Shown piece by piece: positions 11,243 to 21,861 of a stretch of 43,354 nucleotides of DNA. This DNA comes from Firmicutes bacterium HGW-Firmicutes-3. Lineage in GTDB: Bacteria; Bacillota; Clostridia; Lachnospirales; Vallitaleaceae. Position 1 is the first letter of the stretch. Each line of letters starts with the position of its first letter. The notes below the pieces were generated by a model. That model saw only the letters and a list, made by a program, of their open reading frames with translations, searched no databases and had not been told where the DNA came from. The stretch lies in assembly GCA_002841435.1 (NCBI GenBank), contig PGZS01000007.1, positions 1 to 43,354 of the forward strand, read 5' to 3'. The translations under genes were made by a program, and so were the position numbers.

Positions 11243-13300
11243 TTAGGAAGATTTTTCTTCCAACTCCTGATATTGTAACTGATACAAGTTATAGTATAAA
11301 CCTTTTTTGCTCAGTAAAGTTTGATGGTTACCTATTTCCTTAATACGACCTTTATGTAAGACAACAATTTTATCTGCATGTTGTATGGTGGACAATCGGT
11401 GTGCAACCACCAAAGTTGTACGATTTTCCATAAGCTTTAAGAGGGCATCTTGTATCAACACTTCTGTCTCCGTATCAATATTGGCGGTTGCTTCATCAAG
11501 CACCAGAACCGAAGGCTTGTATGCCAGTGTTCTTGCAAAAGACAGCAACTGCCTTTGGCCTGCGGATAATGTAGCCCCTCTTTCAAATACATGTTCATCA
11601 TACTTGCTGGGCATTTTTTCGATGAAAATATGAGCGTTGACGAATTTCGCTGCTGCTATTACATCTACGTCACTTATGCTTTCTTCACCAAGGCGTATGT
11701 TTTCTTTGATGTCTCCTGTAAAGAGAAACACGTCCTGCAACATTTGTCCCACATGTTTCCGTATATTATGTTTGTCCAGAGTCTTGATGTTGTGTCCATC
11801 CAGCAAGATTTCACCTTGTTGTATCTCATAGTATCTGGTAAGCAGGTTGAGTATGGAGGTTTTTCCTGCACCGGTCGCTCCCACAAAAGCTACCGTTTCC
11901 CCCGGATTCACTGTGAAGGATATGTCTTTTAACACATATTCCTCTTCATTATAAGCAAACCATACATTCTTGAACTCAATATGTCCTTTTACAGATTCCA
12001 ACGCTATAGGGTTCTCTGGGTTTTCAATACTTTGATCATCATCCAGTAGTGAGAATATTTTTTCTGCCGCTGCAAAAGCTGACTGAAGGATGCCAAATTG
12101 TTCTGCCAATTGTTGAATTGGGTCAAAAAAGTTTGATATGTACTGAAGGTAGATAACTAAGACACCGATTGTTAAGATACCTTCCATCACCTGATAGCCA
12201 CCATAGCCTAATACCATAGCTAAAGATAATACATAGATCAAATACATGGTTGGCCTATAAACACCAAATACCATTAGTTCCTTCATATTAGCCTTAAACA
12301 ACCCATCGTTGATATCATCAAAGGCTTTCAGTTTTGCTTTTTCTTTTCCGAATATCTGAACGATTTTCATACCGGATATATGCTCCGACAAGAAAGTATT
12401 CACCATGGATACCCGACGTCTAACATCTCTGTATGCTTTTCTTGAGTATTTTCTGAAAATCAAGGTAGATAAGAGAACTAAGGGTAAGACAAGAAAAACT
12501 GCAAGGGCTAGACGCCAGTTCAGAACTATCATCATAACGGATATTCCAACTAAGGTCAAGACACTTTGCACTGAGTTGACGATGACACTTGTGTACATCT
12601 CATTTAAAGTCTCTGTATCATTGGTTACACGTGTCACCAGTTTACCAACCGGGTTCTGATTAAAAAATTCGATGGAACGACCCTGTATATGGGCAAAAAC
12701 CTCGTCTCTAATCTCATAAATAATCTTTTGACCGGTATAATGCAACAATATGGTCTGAAAATATGCTATCAACAACCCCGCAATCAAAATGATGATAAAA
12801 ATCACCATCAATCTAAGGAGTGCTCTATAATCCATAGATCTTAACAGGTCAATCTCCTCAGGTGCTAAAAGCATCGCACTATAAGCCAAACCTTGGTCTG
12901 TTATAAAGTTACCCTTATCATTCAAGCTGCCTTCTACTTCCCTTATGCTTAAGGCTTCCTCATAGGTTAAATCTTGGATGAAATAGTATCGGCCTTCTTC
13001 ATAAATGATGGTGGCTTTAGGCGCTTCCATCAAATTGTTTTCATCTTCAACATAACCTTTTCCTGCAACCTCAAAACCTTCATCTGACGCTACCTGGCTG
13101 TAGATCTTTTGATAATTGACAATCACTTCATCAATGGCTTGGCCAATGATAATCGGTCTAATCAGTTCAATACCGACCACCACCACCAACAATATCATGG
13201 ACAGTGCTATGGCAAAATAATGTTTCTTAGCATATTTAAGCAGTCTCTTAAGTAAAACACCATCATAACCACTTTCAATAACATGATCCTCTACATCCAT
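11243..13300 (-). CDS. ABC exporter half-transporter (BmrD/YheH-like) with large extracytoplasmic insertion
   Basis: Walker A GATGAGKTS, divergent signature LSAGQRQ, Walker B VLVLDEAT; ~110-aa insertion between TM1 and TM2. Confidence 0.9.
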   Translation of the reverse strand: MDVEDHVIESGYDGVLLKRLLKYAKKHYFAIALSMILLVVVVGIELIRPIIIGQAIDEVIVNYQKIYSQVASDEGFEVAGKGYVEDENNLMEAPKATIIYEEGRYYFIQDLTYEEALSIREVEGSLNDKGNFITDQGLAYSAMLLAPEEIDLLRSMDYRALLRLMVIFIIILIAGLLIAYFQTILLHYTGQKIIYEIRDEVFAHIQGRSIEFFNQNPVGKLVTRVTNDTETLNEMYTSVIVNSVQSVLTLVGISVMMIVLNWRLALAVFLVLPLVLLSTLIFRKYSRKAYRDVRRRVSMVNTFLSEHISGMKIVQIFGKEKAKLKAFDDINDGLFKANMKELMVFGVYRPTMYLIYVLSLAMVLGYGGYQVMEGILTIGVLVIYLQYISNFFDPIQQLAEQFGILQSAFAAAEKIFSLLDDDQSIENPENPIALESVKGHIEFKNVWFAYNEEEYVLKDISFTVNPGETVAFVGATGAGKTSILNLLTRYYEIQQGEILLDGHNIKTLDKHNIRKHVGQMLQDVFLFTGDIKENIRLGEESISDVDVIAAAKFVNAHIFIEKMPSKYDEHVFERGATLSAGQRQLLSFARTLAYKPSVLVLDEATANIDTETEVLIQDALLKLMENRTTLVVAHRLSTIQHADKIVVLHKGRIKEIGNHQTLLSKKGLYYNLYQLQYQELEEKSS

Positions 13301-13308
13301 TTTGCCAC

Positions 13309-15072
13309 CTACCCTTCCTCTATGATTTCTCTTTCTAATTGTTGTTGTTTAACCATTTCATAATAGAGGCCCTTGTTGGCAATCAAAGCTTCATGTTGAC
13401 CTTGTTCCACGATGCGACCGTCATCTAGCACAATAATCAAATCGGCATGTTGTATTGTGGATATTCTATGGGCAATAAGAATCTGGGTTTGATGACCTCT
13501 TTGATTTTTAAGCATATCCAGTATGGCTTCTTCTGTTTTTGTATCCACGGCTGATACGGCGTCATCCAGAATCAGAATCGGCGCTTCGCTTAGCAATGCT
13601 CTCGCTATAGAAATACGTTGTTTTTGACCGCCGGATAATGTAACACCTCGCTCGCCTATTATGGTATCATACCCGTCTTTAAAATCTATAATATTGTCAT
13701 GAACACAGGCTTCCTTCGCTGCTTCACTTGCTTCATCTCTTTGAATAACCTCTTTTGCAAAGCCGATGTTGTTGATAATCGTATCCGAGAAAAGAAAATT
13801 ATCTTGTGGAACATAACCAAAGCTTTTCCTTAACTTTTCAAGTGGTAGTGCAAGCACGTCCACCCCGTCAAGGAAAACTGTGTTTTCAGGTGGGTCAAAA
13901 AGTCTTAAAAGAAGGTTGGCTAAGGTGGTCTTACCACTACCGGTACGTCCGAGAATACCCACCGATTGTCCTGCTTCTATGGAAAGGCTTATGTCTCTTA
14001 GGACCGGTTCAGCATCCTGCTTATAAGCAAAGGTCAAGTCTTTCATCTGAATGCTACCACTCAGTTGTGCCACTTCTATTAATACTTCTTTATCAGCCAC
14101 TGTGCTCTTAGTTGCCATGATTTCTTCATAACGCGATAGAGATGCCATACCTTGAGATACAATGTTAATACACCAACCAAAAGCCATCATTGGCCATACC
14201 AGTATTAAGATGTACTGAACAAAAGCGACAAACTCACCTAATGTAATCTCTCCCCTTATGGTCATCCTACCACCAAATCCAAGGGCAATTGCAATTGATA
14301 ACCCACTAATGAGTGTCACCAAGGGCATCATAATTGCAAACAGCTTTACGACGTGCATGTTCTTATCATAATTGTGTCGATTGGCTACACTGAACTTAGT
14401 CATTTCATAAGTTTCTTTGACAAATGCTTTAATCACACGCATACCGGATATGTTTTCTTGGACAAGATCTGATAAATGGGCAAAAGCCTCTTGTTTATCT
14501 TTGAATCGTTTTCGTATAAACTTACCTAGAATCAAGCTCCCGATGGCAATCACCGGTAAAGGTAAGATGCTGATCACTGTTAGCTTTAAGCTGATGGTGC
14601 CAATCATCTTGTAGAGCACCAAAACGGTTAAGATAACTGCATCTAGCGCCATTAAAACACCCGGTCCAACCATCATCCTTATGGCATTCAAATCGTTAGT
14701 AGCATAAGCCATTAAATCACCAGTTTTATGCTCGTTAAAAAAATCGGTAGACAAAGATTCCAGTTTAATAAAGTAGTCTCTTCTCATATTTTTCTCTATG
14801 TGTCTGGATGTACCAAATATATAATAACGCCAAGCAAAACGGCCAAGGGTAATCGTAATTCCAATCATCAACAACTTAAAAAGTTCTCTCATGAGTAAAG
14901 GCATCGTTAGAACACCATATTGAAGGTCATTGGTTATGTTACCGGTAATGACCGGTATATTTAATTGTATAACATCCACTAATATCACGGCTAGTATACC
15001 TAATATATAATGCCCAATGTATTGTTTCATATAGCCAATCAATCTTTGACCTTTGTTGATTTTTGGATCCAT
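13309..15072 (-). CDS. ABC exporter half-transporter (BmrC/YheI-like)
   Basis: Walker A GRTGSGKTT, signature LSGGQKQR, Walker B ILILDDAVSAVD with Asp in place of the catalytic Glu. Confidence 0.9.
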   Translation of the reverse strand: MDPKINKGQRLIGYMKQYIGHYILGILAVILVDVIQLNIPVITGNITNDLQYGVLTMPLLMRELFKLLMIGITITLGRFAWRYYIFGTSRHIEKNMRRDYFIKLESLSTDFFNEHKTGDLMAYATNDLNAIRMMVGPGVLMALDAVILTVLVLYKMIGTISLKLTVISILPLPVIAIGSLILGKFIRKRFKDKQEAFAHLSDLVQENISGMRVIKAFVKETYEMTKFSVANRHNYDKNMHVVKLFAIMMPLVTLISGLSIAIALGFGGRMTIRGEITLGEFVAFVQYILILVWPMMAFGWCINIVSQGMASLSRYEEIMATKSTVADKEVLIEVAQLSGSIQMKDLTFAYKQDAEPVLRDISLSIEAGQSVGILGRTGSGKTTLANLLLRLFDPPENTVFLDGVDVLALPLEKLRKSFGYVPQDNFLFSDTIINNIGFAKEVIQRDEASEAAKEACVHDNIIDFKDGYDTIIGERGVTLSGGQKQRISIARALLSEAPILILDDAVSAVDTKTEEAILDMLKNQRGHQTQILIAHRISTIQHADLIIVLDDGRIVEQGQHEALIANKGLYYEMVKQQQLEREIIEEG

Positions 15073-15117: not shown

Positions 15118-17493
15118 TTAGTCGATGCTATACGCTTCCATAAATAAAAACCGATAGCTACAAGTATGCTTAATCTTTTCTACAGTACTTGTCTCTAAAG
15201 TACCTATTCCGTTTTGCGTCATGTTTCCGTCATCTATAAGAAGGGTTGTAGTTCCTTGGTCAAGAGTGGCTAAACTGGCATTAAAACCGTTTTTTTCCAA
15301 GCTTTCCACCATAATCCCTTCACCATCCGTACCCGTCAAGGTCATCCATCGAACATCCTTATAAGTGCCGGGCTTTATTGGGTTCATACCCTCATGATTG
15401 ATTTCATATAGATCCATTTGATATAGACCCATTTGTGCACTTGTCATAGAATTTAGATAGCTTGGATACGGCCCTCTGCCAAACCAGTTGACCTGATTTT
15501 TTATGGCTGGCAATGTCATTGTAGATCCAAGTCTATCCAACTTATTATCTGCCTCACCTTCATAATAAACACTAAGCTCTCCAGTTGAAAAAATCTCATA
15601 TTTAATCAATAAAAGCGTTTTCATTGCCTTGATTTTAATCTCAAAATAAAGATCCACTTGTGACCCTTTTCTATCTATACGGTATGCCTTAACATGATTA
15701 TTATGAGCTTCGGCTGCTTCAATGCCTGTTTTTAAATCTGACAAACTTCTCCAAATCGGTTGAATTGGTTGTGCCAATAAAGCTTTATTGTCCACCTTGA
15801 TTTGCGTGATATATCCTGTATTTTTATCAAATTCATAATGTGTTTTTTCACTGATAACTTCAACGCTCTGATTTGTTTCATTTATGATGCAGTCGATGCT
15901 TGATTTGGGCATATAGATGACCGGATGGTAGCCTTCTCTCTCAAACTGTTTACTAGCAATTATGTGTTCTTTTTTAGCCCACCATATCTCTTCTGTAAGT
16001 AAGACCTCAAATATAATATGGTACAATACAGTCTCATTTTTTAGTTGCAGCCATGATTTTATTACACCTGAAGTAACCTCACCCGGCTTAACACTCACCG
16101 AATCAAGGTATTCTTTCACAATTGGTGTACCGTCTTCTTGGATGATGACACGCACGTCTATATCCTCTTCCAATAGGTTCAAGTTCTTTATGCTGTAAAA
16201 AGCTGTTTGGGAATCAAAGCTGATGACATAAGGTTCAAATGCCCTTTTGATTTCATATGCTAATGGCTGGATTTCAAAGCTTTTTTCTCCAGAGGGACTT
16301 TGATATGAAAAATAATTCATGAAATTACCTACAAAGCCGCCATGCCATCTGGTATAGGTATGCATACTGTCCATCACCGGCTTCAAGTTTATAAGTTCTT
16401 CATAACCCATTTGCCTATTTGTACATAGTAAGGCAGGTTTTTTCTTATAGGCCATTGCTGTATATTCATCCATACCTTTTGAGAAGCGACTGTCTGCCAG
16501 TAAGACCATATCTCCACGAATATCAAGGCCTTTTCCGATTCTTTCTATTGTTTTCTCATGAAACTTCTCCATAACAAAAACATCACTCAAAAGAAAATCC
16601 TCTTCACTATGCATCATATATGGACGTCGGTCATCCAAGGACAACATGACTTTTTTAACCTCTATGTTTTCCTTTTTATTTAACGCACTTTCTAATGACC
16701 ACATAATGATGCATGGATGATTTCTCATTTTTCCAATTAAAGATGCCGCTTTTAAAAGTGTACCTTCTTTATTACTTTCTATACTATTCACTTCTACGAC
16801 AACATAAAAACCCAATTGATTACAACACTCAAAAAATACATGATCAATACTGTCAATGCTTACTTTAAGGGCATTTATATTGTATTGTTTCAAAAGCATA
16901 AGGTCTTTCCTAAATGTCTCTTTACTAAAAATATTTTTCAAGTCACCACCATAATTGATGCCTCTTATCAGCAAAGGCTTGTTATTCATCAATATTTTTT
17001 CGCCTCTGATTTTTATTTCTCTAAAGCCGTATTGTAAACCTACAACCTGGATAATCTCGTCAAGATGGTCCGTCATCACCACAAGTACCTCGTATAGGTT
17101 AGGTTCTTGATCTGACCAGAATTTTATTGTTTTTATCGGCACCTCAAAATAGCCCTTGGTTGTCATTCTACCTTGGGCAACCATCCTTATGTCCATTGCA
17201 TCTATAGATACTTGGTCTACATTTTCGTGTAGAAATAGTTTTATTTTTATCGGAATTTTTTCTTCTAATAGATTGCGGACTCGAATATTGACCTTCAAAA
17301 TAGATTCTGAAAAATCCCGATCAAAATCACACCTTAGATAAAGATCCTCTATATGGGTCATGGGATCAATCGGCTTATCGGATTGAATCTGCTTTTTCCA
17401 ATCTGAAACAGAATCATAAACCCTCATTTTGCAACGACCTTCATATTCCTTTTCCGTGACATTAGCATCGGTCTTTTTTTTATTTAAAGCCAT
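15118..17493 (-). CDS. LacZ-like glycoside hydrolase family 2 protein, N-terminal sugar-binding domain missing, catalytic residues lost
   Basis: FWSDQEPNLYEVLV, GFREIKIRGEKILMNNKPLLIRGIN, WSLE, GGFVGNF and C-terminal beta-gal small-chain-like domain (WFGRGPYPSYLNS). Start set at M22 of the ORF because 'ggaggtagcagg' precedes it. Confidence 0.8.
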   Translation of the reverse strand: MALNKKKTDANVTEKEYEGRCKMRVYDSVSDWKKQIQSDKPIDPMTHIEDLYLRCDFDRDFSESILKVNIRVRNLLEEKIPIKIKLFLHENVDQVSIDAMDIRMVAQGRMTTKGYFEVPIKTIKFWSDQEPNLYEVLVVMTDHLDEIIQVVGLQYGFREIKIRGEKILMNNKPLLIRGINYGGDLKNIFSKETFRKDLMLLKQYNINALKVSIDSIDHVFFECCNQLGFYVVVEVNSIESNKEGTLLKAASLIGKMRNHPCIIMWSLESALNKKENIEVKKVMLSLDDRRPYMMHSEEDFLLSDVFVMEKFHEKTIERIGKGLDIRGDMVLLADSRFSKGMDEYTAMAYKKKPALLCTNRQMGYEELINLKPVMDSMHTYTRWHGGFVGNFMNYFSYQSPSGEKSFEIQPLAYEIKRAFEPYVISFDSQTAFYSIKNLNLLEEDIDVRVIIQEDGTPIVKEYLDSVSVKPGEVTSGVIKSWLQLKNETVLYHIIFEVLLTEEIWWAKKEHIIASKQFEREGYHPVIYMPKSSIDCIINETNQSVEVISEKTHYEFDKNTGYITQIKVDNKALLAQPIQPIWRSLSDLKTGIEAAEAHNNHVKAYRIDRKGSQVDLYFEIKIKAMKTLLLIKYEIFSTGELSVYYEGEADNKLDRLGSTMTLPAIKNQVNWFGRGPYPSYLNSMTSAQMGLYQMDLYEINHEGMNPIKPGTYKDVRWMTLTGTDGEGIMVESLEKNGFNASLATLDQGTTTLLIDDGNMTQNGIGTLETSTVEKIKHTCSYRFLFMEAYSID

Positions 17494-17641
17494 TCCTGCT
17501 ACCTCCAATACCATTAGATCTTCTATCAATAAATCCCTTTTACTTCGTTCCCTCATTATACCTTAAGTAGGCATCTTTGCCTATCTTCTTTGCACATTCT
17601 ATCCATTCTATGACATAATCCTTAGAAATACTCTTAACTGA

Positions 17642-17697
17642 AAAAAGGGCTGTTTATCAAAGGTTTTTATACCTTTAATAAAACAGCCTACTTTTTT
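17642..17697 (-). terminator. Putative terminator of the 50-aa ORF
   Basis: ggctgttttattaaaggtataaaaacctttgataaacagccctttttt on the minus strand. Confidence 0.7.
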
Positions 17698-17850
17698 CTA
17701 TTTAGCAATTGGTCCACCGTGTTTTTTCGAATCAAAGGCCTCATGCTCCTTACCTGACTTCTTCTCAGGTCGTAAATGGTTATCCTGATGACCTCGATTC
17801 TTTTTCTCATCAATGAGTTTTTTTAGTTCCTCTTCTGTCTTTTTCTCCAT
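17698..17850 (-). CDS. 50-aa charged hypothetical protein, below the length cutoff of the ORF track
   Basis: MEKKTEEELKKLIDEKKNRGHQDNHLRPEKKSGKEHEAFDSKKHGGPIAK; RBS 'aaaaggagtg' before the ATG, terminator after the stop. Confidence 0.7.
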   Translation of the reverse strand: MEKKTEEELKKLIDEKKNRGHQDNHLRPEKKSGKEHEAFDSKKHGGPIAK

Positions 17851-17920: not shown

Positions 17921-18937
17921 TTAACGCCTGACATAAGCCAAAGTTGATTCTCTTTCTATGTAATTTGCTTCAACAATTATATTTCTTTCCATAGATGTGT
18001 TCTTTTCTAATTGATCTATAAGCACTAAAGCTGCATAGTGACCTAGTTTCTCAGCATTGATATCCACTGTTGATATGGTTGGATTATTAAATACAGATAA
18101 AGGCGTATTGTTAAATCCTGCAAAAGCAACACCTAAAATGCCGGCTTCTATAGTGGCCTTATAAGCACCATAAGCAACCATATCATCTGTTCCTACTATG
18201 GCATCTGGACTAATCACTTTTAGCATTTGCTTCATAGCCTCATAAGCCTTTTGTTCTGTGGGTTCACCTTCAACCACCAGCTTATCATCCCATTCGATTC
18301 CATTTTGCTCAAGGGCTTGACGGTACCCTCTTAGGCGATGACGATAAACCGTAAACTGTTGTTCGCCACCAATATAAGCAATTTTTCTATGCCCTTGCTT
18401 AATTAAGCGGTTTACGATATTCTCCATGGCCATCACATTATCATTGTCAACCCATAACACTTTATCCCTTTGTGCTTCCGGTCTTCCAATTACCACAAAT
18501 GGTTGGTTTCTCTTCATAAGCAGCTCTACGCTCTTATCTTGAATACGCGTTGAGGTCAATATGATACCGTCCACCCATTTACTATCCATGTAATGTTTGA
18601 TGGTTTCTACTTCTTCTTCTTCACTTCTGCAGTAATTATACATGATGTAATAGCCTTTTTGTTTGGCATAGACACTAAGACCGCGCATCACCTGCATAAA
18701 AAATGGGTTCTCAAAAACTTCTTCGTCCTTACTCGGTAAAATAAGACCAAGTGTATAGGTTACTCGGTTGGCTAAGCTCCTTGCAATAATATTCGGCTGA
18801 TAGTTCATCTCTTTCATGGTTTCAAAGACACGTTTTTTTGTAGCCACACTTATTTTGGGACTATCCGCTATCACTCTCGAAACTGTGGATGGTGATACCC
18901 CGGCTTTTTTTGCTACATGTTTTATGGTTACATGCAT
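17921..18937 (-). CDS. LacI-family transcriptional regulator
   Basis: N-terminal HTH VTIKHVAKKAGVSPSTVSRVIADSPKISVATKKRV; periplasmic-binding-like effector domain. Confidence 0.93.
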   Translation of the reverse strand: MHVTIKHVAKKAGVSPSTVSRVIADSPKISVATKKRVFETMKEMNYQPNIIARSLANRVTYTLGLILPSKDEEVFENPFFMQVMRGLSVYAKQKGYYIMYNYCRSEEEEVETIKHYMDSKWVDGIILTSTRIQDKSVELLMKRNQPFVVIGRPEAQRDKVLWVDNDNVMAMENIVNRLIKQGHRKIAYIGGEQQFTVYRHRLRGYRQALEQNGIEWDDKLVVEGEPTEQKAYEAMKQMLKVISPDAIVGTDDMVAYGAYKATIEAGILGVAFAGFNNTPLSVFNNPTISTVDINAEKLGHYAALVLIDQLEKNTSMERNIIVEANYIERESTLAYVRR

Positions 18938-18970
18938 ATTGGCACTTCCTAACATCATTAATTTTGTTGG

Positions 18971-19324
18971 TTACTCTATGTTCTGTTCAACTGTGGCTTG
19001 GTATTCATCCACTTTTTTAGATAGAAATTCTGCAAGGCCAACAAATTCACAACCATATAAGTTGGTGCCATCATAATCGACTTTTCGCACAATCTTGACG
19101 ACACAATAAAAATAATTCTGCTGATCAAAATCAATCCTAGCATCAAAATAATAACCTAACGGCAATTCGGATTCACATTCAAATCCGATACCTGTTCTAG
19201 ATATGTTAATAACATGAATTTCCTTATTGGCCATTGGAATGATTTCATGATCCTGTCTAAATAATTCGTTGATGGCTAGCTCAAGTCTAATCGGTAAACG
19301 TTTGTTTTTTCTTCTCTCTTCCAT
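18971..19324 (-). CDS. PilZ-domain c-di-GMP receptor
   Basis: RKNKR (RxxxR) and NISRTG (N/DxSxxG) motifs; start at M7 of the ORF. Confidence 0.85.
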   Translation of the reverse strand: MEERRKNKRLPIRLELAINELFRQDHEIIPMANKEIHVINISRTGIGFECESELPLGYYFDARIDFDQQNYFYCVVKIVRKVDYDGTNLYGCEFVGLAEFLSKKVDEYQATVEQNIE

Positions 19325-20879
19325 TTGGCTTCTCCTCTTCATTCTGTGAATATCGGCAACACCTATTACGACCTTGATTTTTGGCTAGATAGAGTCCTTG
19401 ATCTGCTATATGTATCATTTCATCCGATGTTCTTGGTGATAGATACCTATTATCCGCAACCCCAATACTTAAGGTAACCGGTATCGGTCTTTTGTCTATT
19501 AGCAATGGCTCATAAGCTACACTGCTAATGAACTCATTAGCTTTTTCTTCTGCATCATTAATGTCTGCATCAATCATGAGTACCATAAATTCATCTCCAC
19601 CAAAACGACCAATGATGGAATCAGAATCCAATGACTCTTCACATATTCCACTGATGTGCTTGATGATTTCATCACCAACAAGGTGACCATAAGTATCATT
19701 AATACTTTTAAAGTGATCGATATCCATGATGATTGCCGCTAAATTCCGATTGTTTTCTTTGGCAATACTAAATTCTTCCCGAAGCTTCAAGGTGAAATAT
19801 TTTCTATTGTAGACGCCTGTCAGATAATCCTCAATAGCCGATTGATGAAGATCATCATTTTGTCTCGCCAGTACTTCATTCAGTCGTTCTAACTCATTGG
19901 ACTGTTCTTGTATTTTTCGATTCTGTTCTTCTAGGATTGCATACTGCTCTTTGAGCAAATCCGTCTCAGAATTTTTTTTATTCATATCATACTGAGCTTT
20001 TAGTTTCGCGACGGCGCCTTGCTTTGCGTCGTCCGATAATATGTCGGAATACTCAATATAGTCTTTAAGCTCATAATAAGCTTTTTCAAAATCTTCAGTC
20101 TTGACGTAAATCTCCGAAAGGATTCGTGTGGCTTCGGCAAGTTCTGCAATATAGCCATGTTTTAAAGATATAACCTTAGATGCTTTAACTTGATTAATAG
20201 CCTCTAGATTGTCTCCTTCGATGGCATAGATTTCACCTCTATACATGTAAGCTTCTGCTCTTGAGAAACGACTGCTTCCGGGTTTTAATGCTAAAAAAAC
20301 CTGCTCTAAATGCTGTTTAGATTTTTCAATTTGGTTGGTTCGAAGATAACTTAGAGCCAGATTACCTTGTATAATGGTAAGGAGATCATAGAATCTATAG
20401 GTAGATGCAAGTTCCACAGCCCGCTCCAAATGAGGAATCGCCTGCTCAAATGACTTGGTCGTATTATAAAAGAAACCGTAATTGTTTTCATTTTTCACTT
20501 CTTCTAATTTAAGCTGATGGTTTTTAGCTAGAATTTCTACTTTTTTTAGATAAATCAGTGCTTCCTCATAATCTCCTTGTCTTGTATAAAGGCTTATGAA
20601 AACATTATAAGTCTTAATTAACTCACTAATGTTGCCATCTTCTTCAACCACCTTAGAAAACTCAATGATATAGCGCATCGCACTGATATAATCAACCACA
20701 AAATAAGATGCGTAGGATAGAACTTCAAGAGACTTTCTTTCACTGGCCCTATCTTTCATATTCCTAGCTTTTTCAAGGAGTTCTTTACCAATCTTAATGG
20801 CGCTTCTGAACTTTTCCTCCTTAAATAGCCCAACCATTTCGTCATACATACTATTATTATCCGGAAATACCTGGCTCAT
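19287..20879 (-). CDS. TPR-repeat diguanylate cyclase
   Basis: N-terminal TPR-like repeats; coiled-coil; DYLTGVYNRKYF...GRFGGDEFMVLM. Confidence 0.92.
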   Translation of the reverse strand: MSQVFPDNNSMYDEMVGLFKEEKFRSAIKIGKELLEKARNMKDRASERKSLEVLSYASYFVVDYISAMRYIIEFSKVVEEDGNISELIKTYNVFISLYTRQGDYEEALIYLKKVEILAKNHQLKLEEVKNENNYGFFYNTTKSFEQAIPHLERAVELASTYRFYDLLTIIQGNLALSYLRTNQIEKSKQHLEQVFLALKPGSSRFSRAEAYMYRGEIYAIEGDNLEAINQVKASKVISLKHGYIAELAEATRILSEIYVKTEDFEKAYYELKDYIEYSDILSDDAKQGAVAKLKAQYDMNKKNSETDLLKEQYAILEEQNRKIQEQSNELERLNEVLARQNDDLHQSAIEDYLTGVYNRKYFTLKLREEFSIAKENNRNLAAIIMDIDHFKSINDTYGHLVGDEIIKHISGICEESLDSDSIIGRFGGDEFMVLMIDADINDAEEKANEFISSVAYEPLLIDKRPIPVTLSIGVADNRYLSPRTSDEMIHIADQGLYLAKNQGRNRCCRYSQNEEEKPNGREKKKQTFTD

Positions 20880-20902: not shown

Positions 20903-21784
20903 TTATTCATAATCTTTTTTAAGCTGTGTCCGAATCATATTAGGATTTATTTGTTTTAAAGTGCCTTCAAACTTGCTAATCACTTTGCTATCATGAATGC
21001 CGTCTGTCATTTCTTTATATAAAACTTCCCATGCATGACCATCCTCTGGAAAAGTTACGCCGTATAAAAATAGTGCACCTCTTGATGGCGTCTCTTTCTT
21101 AATCTGGTCATAGGCTTTCCTTACTTTATTCTCAACTTCTACGAGAAAGTTTTTGGGTGTAAATGGGCATAGTAGCAAGATTTTGTTGGCTTCAAAGTAC
21201 ATCACAATATCTGTGGTTCTAAGCAACAAATTCAAAGCTTCTTTAAACAAAATCCATTGGAGTTGATTTAAACTATGGTATTCCACCAATACAAAAGAGA
21301 GTGGGTAATTGCCACGCATGGCTCTATTGATTTCATCTCTAACCTTATTTATATCTATTTTTATATAATTCTGTATCTGAACTTTATCTTGACTCGATGG
21401 CATTAATAGTGAGGGCTTCTGTGTGTCAAAGAAAGACAAAATCTTTTTGGATAAATGGGTTCGATCCATTGGTAAAACGATGATGTCTTTAACCTTTAGG
21501 GCCAAGGCATCGTCTATGACATGTTTTGAATATTTATGAATCAGGACAATGGAGCGTACATTTTCCGTATCTATACTTCGAATCTGATCCAATGAATCTT
21601 CATAATGGTTTTCATCCAACTCTTGTATATACAGATCTATCTGATCCTTAACCAAGTTGTATTTGAAGCCTAACTCGTTTTTATTGAAAACCTCTAAAAA
21701 ATCATGGCCTTTATTAACCAAAATACTTAATATGTCATTTTTTACCTGTGTTGTATAAATATGAATCAATACTTTCTTTTCCAC
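20903..21784 (-). CDS. Degenerate receiver / degenerate GGDEF protein
   Basis: REC-like alpha/beta N-terminus without canonical DD/D/K residues; GGDEF-like C-terminus in which the motif position reads EANKI (TDIVMYFEANKILLLCPF). GTG start at 21784 after 'gaggtg'. Confidence 0.6.
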   Translation of the reverse strand: MEKKVLIHIYTTQVKNDILSILVNKGHDFLEVFNKNELGFKYNLVKDQIDLYIQELDENHYEDSLDQIRSIDTENVRSIVLIHKYSKHVIDDALALKVKDIIVLPMDRTHLSKKILSFFDTQKPSLLMPSSQDKVQIQNYIKIDINKVRDEINRAMRGNYPLSFVLVEYHSLNQLQWILFKEALNLLLRTTDIVMYFEANKILLLCPFTPKNFLVEVENKVRKAYDQIKKETPSRGALFLYGVTFPEDGHAWEVLYKEMTDGIHDSKVISKFEGTLKQINPNMIRTQLKKDYE

Positions 21785-21861
21785 AAAATCACCTCTCAAT
21801 ACTAGTTTATCGGCAAATTCAGGTGATTTGTTAAGCAACTTCACTTGTCATCTAGGACAAC

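What the first reader, a model, noticed from the sequence alone, without database searches (positions are those of the whole stretch)
15118..17493. LacZ-like GH2 protein that looks like a pseudoenzyme
Scaffold motifs of LacZ-type GH2 remain, but the active-site positions do not: RGVNRHEHH reads RGINYGGDL; the acid/base motif WSLGNES reads WSLESAL (no NE pair); the nucleophile motif ILCEYAHAMGN reads LLCTNRQMGYE (Glu to Thr); DEANIETHG reads VEVNSIESN; GGFVWDWVDQ reads GGFVGNFMNYF. The N-terminal sugar-binding domain is also missing. Yet a ~790-aa frame is fully open, with a good RBS, near a LacI regulator. This suggests selection for a non-catalytic role such as carbohydrate binding or sensing.
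Basis: partly seen in the sequence, partly recalled or inferred. Interest (0 to 1): 0.65.

Follow-up and report, generated by a model that had tools for sequence, protein, structure and literature searches.

The report
A LacZ relative that lost catalysis
This gene makes a shortened relative of the sugar-splitting enzyme LacZ that has lost its whole cutting site, yet related bacteria of one family keep versions of it at the same chromosomal place under selection, which suggests an old enzyme scaffold reused for another, still unknown, job.

Summary
It encodes a 791-aa LacZ-type GH2 homologue without the N-terminal sugar-binding domain and without E461, E537, H391, R388, Y503, H540 or W568. The barrel also lacks the strand-8 region.

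All four held genus members (Petrocella) share the losses. Their dN/dS is 0.17-0.21, against 0.05-0.07 for true LacZ of the same species and 0.02-0.07 for most neighbours. So the gene is constrained but relaxed, and not a pseudogene.

The larger result is a family-wide series. Two other genera carry full-length LacZ homologues whose nucleophile is Ala; one of these also has the acid/base Glu as Asp. A third genus (six genomes) has ~695-aa, even more reduced versions. Conserved order (PilZ, pseudo-LacZ, ABC exporter pair, with partial losses) and a weakly supported clade point to one lineage: 13 of 22 family genomes, 4 of 8 genera. No close relative appeared among the other order and class genomes sampled.

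Sugar sensing through the old pocket is unlikely here because the pocket is gone; it remains plausible for the intermediates. The nearby LacI gene is separated by a 50-aa ORF and a terminator. Function is inferred only.

The parts
15118..17493 (-). PSZ: LacZ-like pseudoenzyme, 791 aa (start ATG 17493)
   Evidence: Open frame, Pfam domains, catalytic positions, dN/dS
17362..17493 (-). N-terminal 43-44 residues with no detected LacZ counterpart; conserved in the four species (includes the invariant run KEYEGRCKM)
17020..17358 (-). LacZ domain 2-like beta-sandwich (residues 46-158); low dN/dS, 0.09-0.12
16264..17016 (-). Reduced TIM barrel (residues ~160-410): strands 1-7 recognisable, strand-8 region absent, no catalytic residues
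15940..16167 (-). LacZ_4-like beta-sandwich (residues 443-518)
   Evidence: below the Pfam cut-off, 25.4 vs 27.3 bits
15271..15849 (-). Bgal_small_N (LacZ domain 5) remnant, residues 549-741
17555..17583 (-). Promoter-like site TAGGCA-17-TATAAT, identical hexamers and spacing in all four species
17630..17700 (-). Terminator-like hairpin between the small ORF and the PSZ promoter
17698..17850 (-). 50-aa conserved small ORF between LacI and PSZ
17921..18958 (-). LacI/CcpA-like regulator (neighbour; link to PSZ not supported)
18971..19342 (-). PilZ-domain protein; homologues directly precede pseudo-LacZ in five genomes of two other genera
19287..20879 (-). TPR-GGDEF protein (linked also in genus g6)
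13309..15072 (-). ABC exporter half 1, 45 nt downstream of PSZ; same order in genus g3
11243..13300 (-). ABC exporter half 2; same order in genus g3

Best explanation
PSZ is a cytoplasmic (no obvious export signal), non-hydrolytic LacZ homologue. It is the Petrocella representative of a family-wide pseudo-LacZ lineage that sits beside a PilZ (c-di-GMP receptor-like) gene. Proposed path: a LacZ-type enzyme at this locus first lost its nucleophile (E537A, the state in genera g2 and g6) and could still hold but not cleave a galactoside; in Petrocella and genus g3 the sugar-binding domain and much of the barrel were then lost, leaving the beta-sandwich domains as the conserved part. I think it now works as a protein-binding scaffold or regulator, most likely for neighbouring gene products (PilZ/GGDEF module or the ABC exporter). 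Shown: loss of catalytic residues, constraint, conserved position. Inferred: single lineage, order of losses, binding role, partner, location in the cell.
For: All catalytic positions lost in four species. Every other full-length LacZ-type protein examined keeps N460, E461, Y503, E537, H540 and W568; only the g2/g6 proteins and PSZ differ. Purifying selection in Petrocella and in g6 (dN/dS 0.061). Position: PilZ then pseudo-LacZ in g6 and in G005/G015/G020 of g3; pseudo-LacZ then both ABC genes in five of six g3 genomes. Best tree puts all 13 in one clade, 66/75, or 86/87 without g3. A recent duplicate of the genus's own LacZ is rejected, AU p 0.002. The g3 profile's only non-self hits at E<=1e-60 in 392 order genomes are the g6/g2 proteins.
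Against: Clade support is not significant, and placements next to other LacZ groups are not rejected (p 0.09-0.12). Position partly reflects general conserved gene order (trxB...uvrC-hprK), so it does not prove a functional partnership. No expression, binding or interaction data. Constraint in Petrocella is relaxed about threefold against true LacZ.
Confidence: 0.55

Rival explanations
1. Sugar sensor or lectin: the protein still binds a galactoside or other glycan and reports it to a regulator.
For: The g6 proteins keep H357, R388, H391, E416, N460 and E461 while the nucleophile is Ala. Solved E. coli LacZ E537Q in complex with lactose (1jyn, listed) shows that a nucleophile mutant can hold substrate. 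A TetR gene directly follows the g6/g2 homologues. Carbon-control genes (hprK, ROK kinase, LacI family) lie in the block.
Against: In PSZ the sugar-binding domain, the strand-8 region and the pocket residues are gone and the pocket positions vary; the same erosion is seen in g3. No operator near the promoter.
Confidence: 0.25
2. Parallel origin: the Petrocella, g3 and g2/g6 proteins are separate LacZ copies that lost catalysis independently.
For: Tree support for one clade is only 66/75; the residues that replace E537 differ (T, A, deletion); right-hand flanks differ between g6/g2 (TetR, hydrogenase) and g1/g3 (ABC).
Against: Shared PilZ neighbour in three genera and shared ABC neighbours in two; the best trees join them.
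Confidence: 0.2
3. Non-functional relic that is slowly decaying.
For: Relaxed dN/dS compared with neighbours and with true LacZ; variable C-terminal linker with indels.
Against: dN/dS far below 1 over the whole length, no stops in any copy, conserved promoter, retention in all four species.
Confidence: 0.05
4. An enzyme that uses other residues or chemistry.
For: Conserved runs in the barrel (IERIGKGLDIR, RFSKGMDEY) could form a new site.
Against: No carboxylate at or beside the nucleophile position, no conserved Arg/His/Asn/Trp of the site, strand-8 region absent.
Confidence: 0.04

Closest known systems
GH2 LacZ-type beta-galactosidase (E. coli LacZ, Thermotoga LacZ 6sd0)
   Same: Domain order 2-3-4-5, about 20-25% identity in aligned parts, recognisable WSL, GGF and LLC strand anchors
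   Different: No domain 1, no acid/base, no nucleophile, no conserved Arg, incomplete barrel
Genus's own catalytically complete LacZ (G000:C277)
   Same: Same superfamily and genome
   Different: Complete active site; not a recent duplicate (AU p 0.002); dN/dS 0.05-0.07
Nucleophile-less LacZ homologues of genera g6 (G008, G013) and g2 (G004)
   Same: Lack E537; g6 copies follow a PilZ gene
   Different: Keep domain 1 and most other site residues; E461 kept in g6, Asp in g2
Glycosidase pseudoenzymes of animals (beetle GH28 pseudoenzymes PMC6549527, heparanase-2 PMC12406646)
   Same: Inactive or catalytically depleted glycosidase folds kept under selection
   Different: Other GH families, eukaryotic; no GH2 or bacterial case turned up in the searches done

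Membership tests
GH2 beta-galactosidase (LacZ type), as an enzyme | Catalytic nucleophile Glu (E537), described as invariant in GH2 (PMC12243196) | tested here: not met
   Thr in all four orthologues
GH2 beta-galactosidase (LacZ type), as an enzyme | Acid/base Glu of the NE motif (N460-E461) | tested here: not met
   S/N/T then A/T
GH2 beta-galactosidase (LacZ type), as an enzyme | Arg of barrel strand 2 that assists the nucleophile (R388) | tested here: not met
   K/I
GH2 beta-galactosidase (LacZ type), as an enzyme | N-terminal sugar-binding domain (Glyco_hydro_2_N) | tested here: not met
   No Pfam match; E. coli residues 12-217 absent
LacZ-type GH2 homologue by descent | Pfam domains 2, 3 and 5 in LacZ order above cut-off | tested here: met
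Pseudoenzyme | Catalytic residues lost in all orthologues | tested here: met
Pseudoenzyme | Coding sequence kept by purifying selection | tested here: met
   dN/dS 0.17-0.21; stop simulation
Pseudoenzyme | No catalytic activity of the purified protein | not testable with these tools
   Needs an assay
Carbohydrate sensor or lectin | Conserved sugar-contacting pocket | tested here: not met
   Pocket positions lost and variable in PSZ; partly kept in g6
Carbohydrate sensor or lectin | Sugar binding by the protein | not testable with these tools
   Needs binding assays
Orthologue of the g3/g6/g2 pseudo-LacZ proteins | One clade in the gene tree | tested here: inconclusive
   66/75 and 86/87
Orthologue of the g3/g6/g2 pseudo-LacZ proteins | Shared gene neighbours | tested here: met
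   PilZ upstream (g6, three g3 genomes), ABC pair downstream (five g3 genomes); G004 linked only through g6's right flank

The most novel reading that the evidence does not exclude
A bacterial family turned LacZ into a non-catalytic component of a c-di-GMP (PilZ/GGDEF)-linked module, and living genera still show the successive steps: nucleophile lost, acid/base altered, then sugar-binding domain and barrel eroded.
Probability: 0.25. Interest if true: 0.8.

Novelty: new variant of a known kind. Interest (0 to 1): 0.6.

Why it matters
LacZ is among the best-studied enzymes, and the GH2 nucleophile is described as invariant (PMC12243196). A lineage in which it is lost in steps that are still visible in living genera would give a testable natural series for how an enzyme becomes a non-enzyme. 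It also warns that such proteins are likely to be annotated as beta-galactosidases. If the PilZ link is functional, it would be a new kind of output for c-di-GMP signalling.

Tried and rejected
First AlphaFold job with three orthologues gave pLDDT 31, useless. The second (seven rows, pLDDT 57, pTM 0.46) finds LacZ in the PDB, but one row was an E. coli-like LacZ, so that match is partly circular and is not used as main evidence. Genome-contig scan with the single protein found nothing; with the four-row alignment only two Petrocella-type loci. Viral-contig scans gave only ordinary LacZ genes. LacI operator search: no excess over chance and no site at the promoter. TetR of g6/g2: only weak homologues in two Petrocella genomes. 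Recent duplicate of the genus's own LacZ: rejected. Apparent internal TAA in G002: it is the natural stop. Rfam and tRNA scans of the window: nothing. Literature searches for a GH2 or LacZ pseudoenzyme found none.

Full report
OBSERVATION. The gene lies on the minus strand, 17493 to 15118 (the + strand of the interval has 40 stops). It encodes 791 aa from an ATG preceded by GGAGG. Pfam finds LacZ domains 2, 3 (in two pieces) and 5 above cut-off and domain 4 just below, but no N-terminal sugar-binding domain. An alignment to a profile made only from catalytically complete LacZ proteins confirms the loss of E461, E537, R388, H391, H540 and W568, and shows that the E. coli LacZ segments 12-217, 424-432, 573-584, 602-611 and 962-1020 are absent.

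SELECTION. All three other held genus members have a syntenic orthologue of 70-77% identity. The third, one contig of 3,518,882 bp, matches P. atlantisensis 70B-A, which uses lactose (PMC6647913). dN/dS (Nei-Gojobori) is 0.17-0.21, against 0.02-0.07 for seven neighbours, 0.02-0.04 for LacI and 0.045-0.074 for the catalytically complete LacZ of the same genomes. Changes concentrate at codon position 3, and neutral divergence to dS 0.85 would leave about 34 stops, minimum 18 in 200 simulations. So the protein is kept by selection, about three times more loosely than true LacZ. Within it the domain-2 sandwich is tightly held (0.09-0.12), while old active-site positions 391 and 460-461 vary among the four. 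dS near 1 makes the absolute ratios rough; the contrast between genes is the sturdy part.

GENE CONTEXT. A TAGGCA-17-TATAAT promoter-like site is identical in all four species, although such matches are as frequent as chance in this region overall. A 50-aa ORF and a strong terminator hairpin (-28 kcal/mol, z -6.2) separate the gene from LacI. No LacI-type operator lies near the promoter. Two halves of an ABC exporter follow after 45 nt and may be co-transcribed (inference).

A FAMILY-WIDE SERIES. In genus g6 (G008, G013) the order is rsp - TPR/GGDEF - PilZ - LacZ homologue. That homologue is full length and keeps E461, R388, H391 and H357, but has E537A, Y503N, H540P or A, D201N and N604S; its dN/dS is 0.061 (one pair). 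In genus g2 (G004) the homologue has E461D and E537A and shares g6's right flank: TetR, response regulator, HPt, kinase, PHP; its left flank is cut by the contig end. E461 is not conserved there (Lys or Arg in five by profile alignment, uncertain in G021), and the E537 segment is deleted or unalignable. Every other full-length LacZ-type protein aligned, from the same family and order plus E. coli LacZ and EbgA, keeps N460, E461, Y503, E537, H540 and W568. The locus exists without a LacZ homologue in genus g4 (PilZ present).

HOW SURE IS ONE LINEAGE. Trees place Petrocella + g2/g6 together (86/87) and all 13 together (66/75), below the usual threshold. Petrocella as a recent duplicate of its own LacZ is rejected (p 0.002), but two other placements are not (p 0.12, 0.09). 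Shared neighbours make common descent likely, about 0.75 to 0.8 in my judgement. The set covers 13 of 22 family genomes and 4 of 8 genera. With the g3 profile at E<=1e-60, 392 order genomes gave only g3, g6 and g2, and 391 class genomes gave none; that profile does not reach even the Petrocella copies at this cut-off, so more distant members could be missed.

MECHANISM. Shown: catalytic apparatus absent, sequence constrained, position conserved. Inferred: the protein does not hydrolyse; the g2/g6 forms could still hold a sugar, as the solved LacZ E537Q-lactose complex shows for a nucleophile mutant (1jyn, listed); in Petrocella and g3 the sandwich domains now serve as a binding scaffold. A role with PilZ/c-di-GMP or the ABC exporter rests on neighbourhood alone, and part of that neighbourhood is general gene-order conservation.

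STRUCTURE. The better model (pLDDT 57, pTM 0.46) has barrel strands 1-7 and the sandwich domains and resembles LacZ in the PDB (TM 0.6), but an E. coli-like LacZ row was in its alignment, so this is not independent.

NOVELTY. Glycosidase pseudoenzymes are a known kind (for example beetle GH28, PMC6549527; heparanase-2, PMC12406646). The searches done found none from GH2 or LacZ, and a 2025 GH2 survey calls the nucleophile invariant (PMC12243196). I rate it a new variant of a known kind. The literature held is open-access only.

Noticed in passing
window 20903-21844 (-); homologues in G004, G006, G008, G012, G013, G016, G019: Conserved ~300-aa protein with no Pfam match, linked to PilZ in genera g1, g4 and g6 and to the TPR-GGDEF gene in g1 and g6; sequence resembles a response-regulator plus degenerate GGDEF arrangement (unverified).
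   Followed up: partly
window 17698-17850 (-): 50-aa, Lys-rich ORF with its own RBS, strongly conserved between the four species, of unknown function.
   Followed up: partly
window 11243-13300 (-): ABC exporter half with a ~90-residue insertion between the first two membrane segments, as in heterodimeric exporters with an extracellular domain (from memory).
   Followed up: no
L068 12459-13100; L041 9398-10057: TetR regulator directly after the nucleophile-less LacZ homologue in genera g6 and g2; only weak homologues in two Petrocella genomes.
   Followed up: partly
L049 (G004:C39), L050 (G004:C22): Two further LacZ fragments at contig ends in G004, possibly one catalytically complete LacZ split by assembly.
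   Followed up: no
L113, L115 (IMG/VR contigs): Contigs listed as viral carry LacZ ~97% identical to E. coli LacZ, probably host or vector DNA.
   Followed up: no
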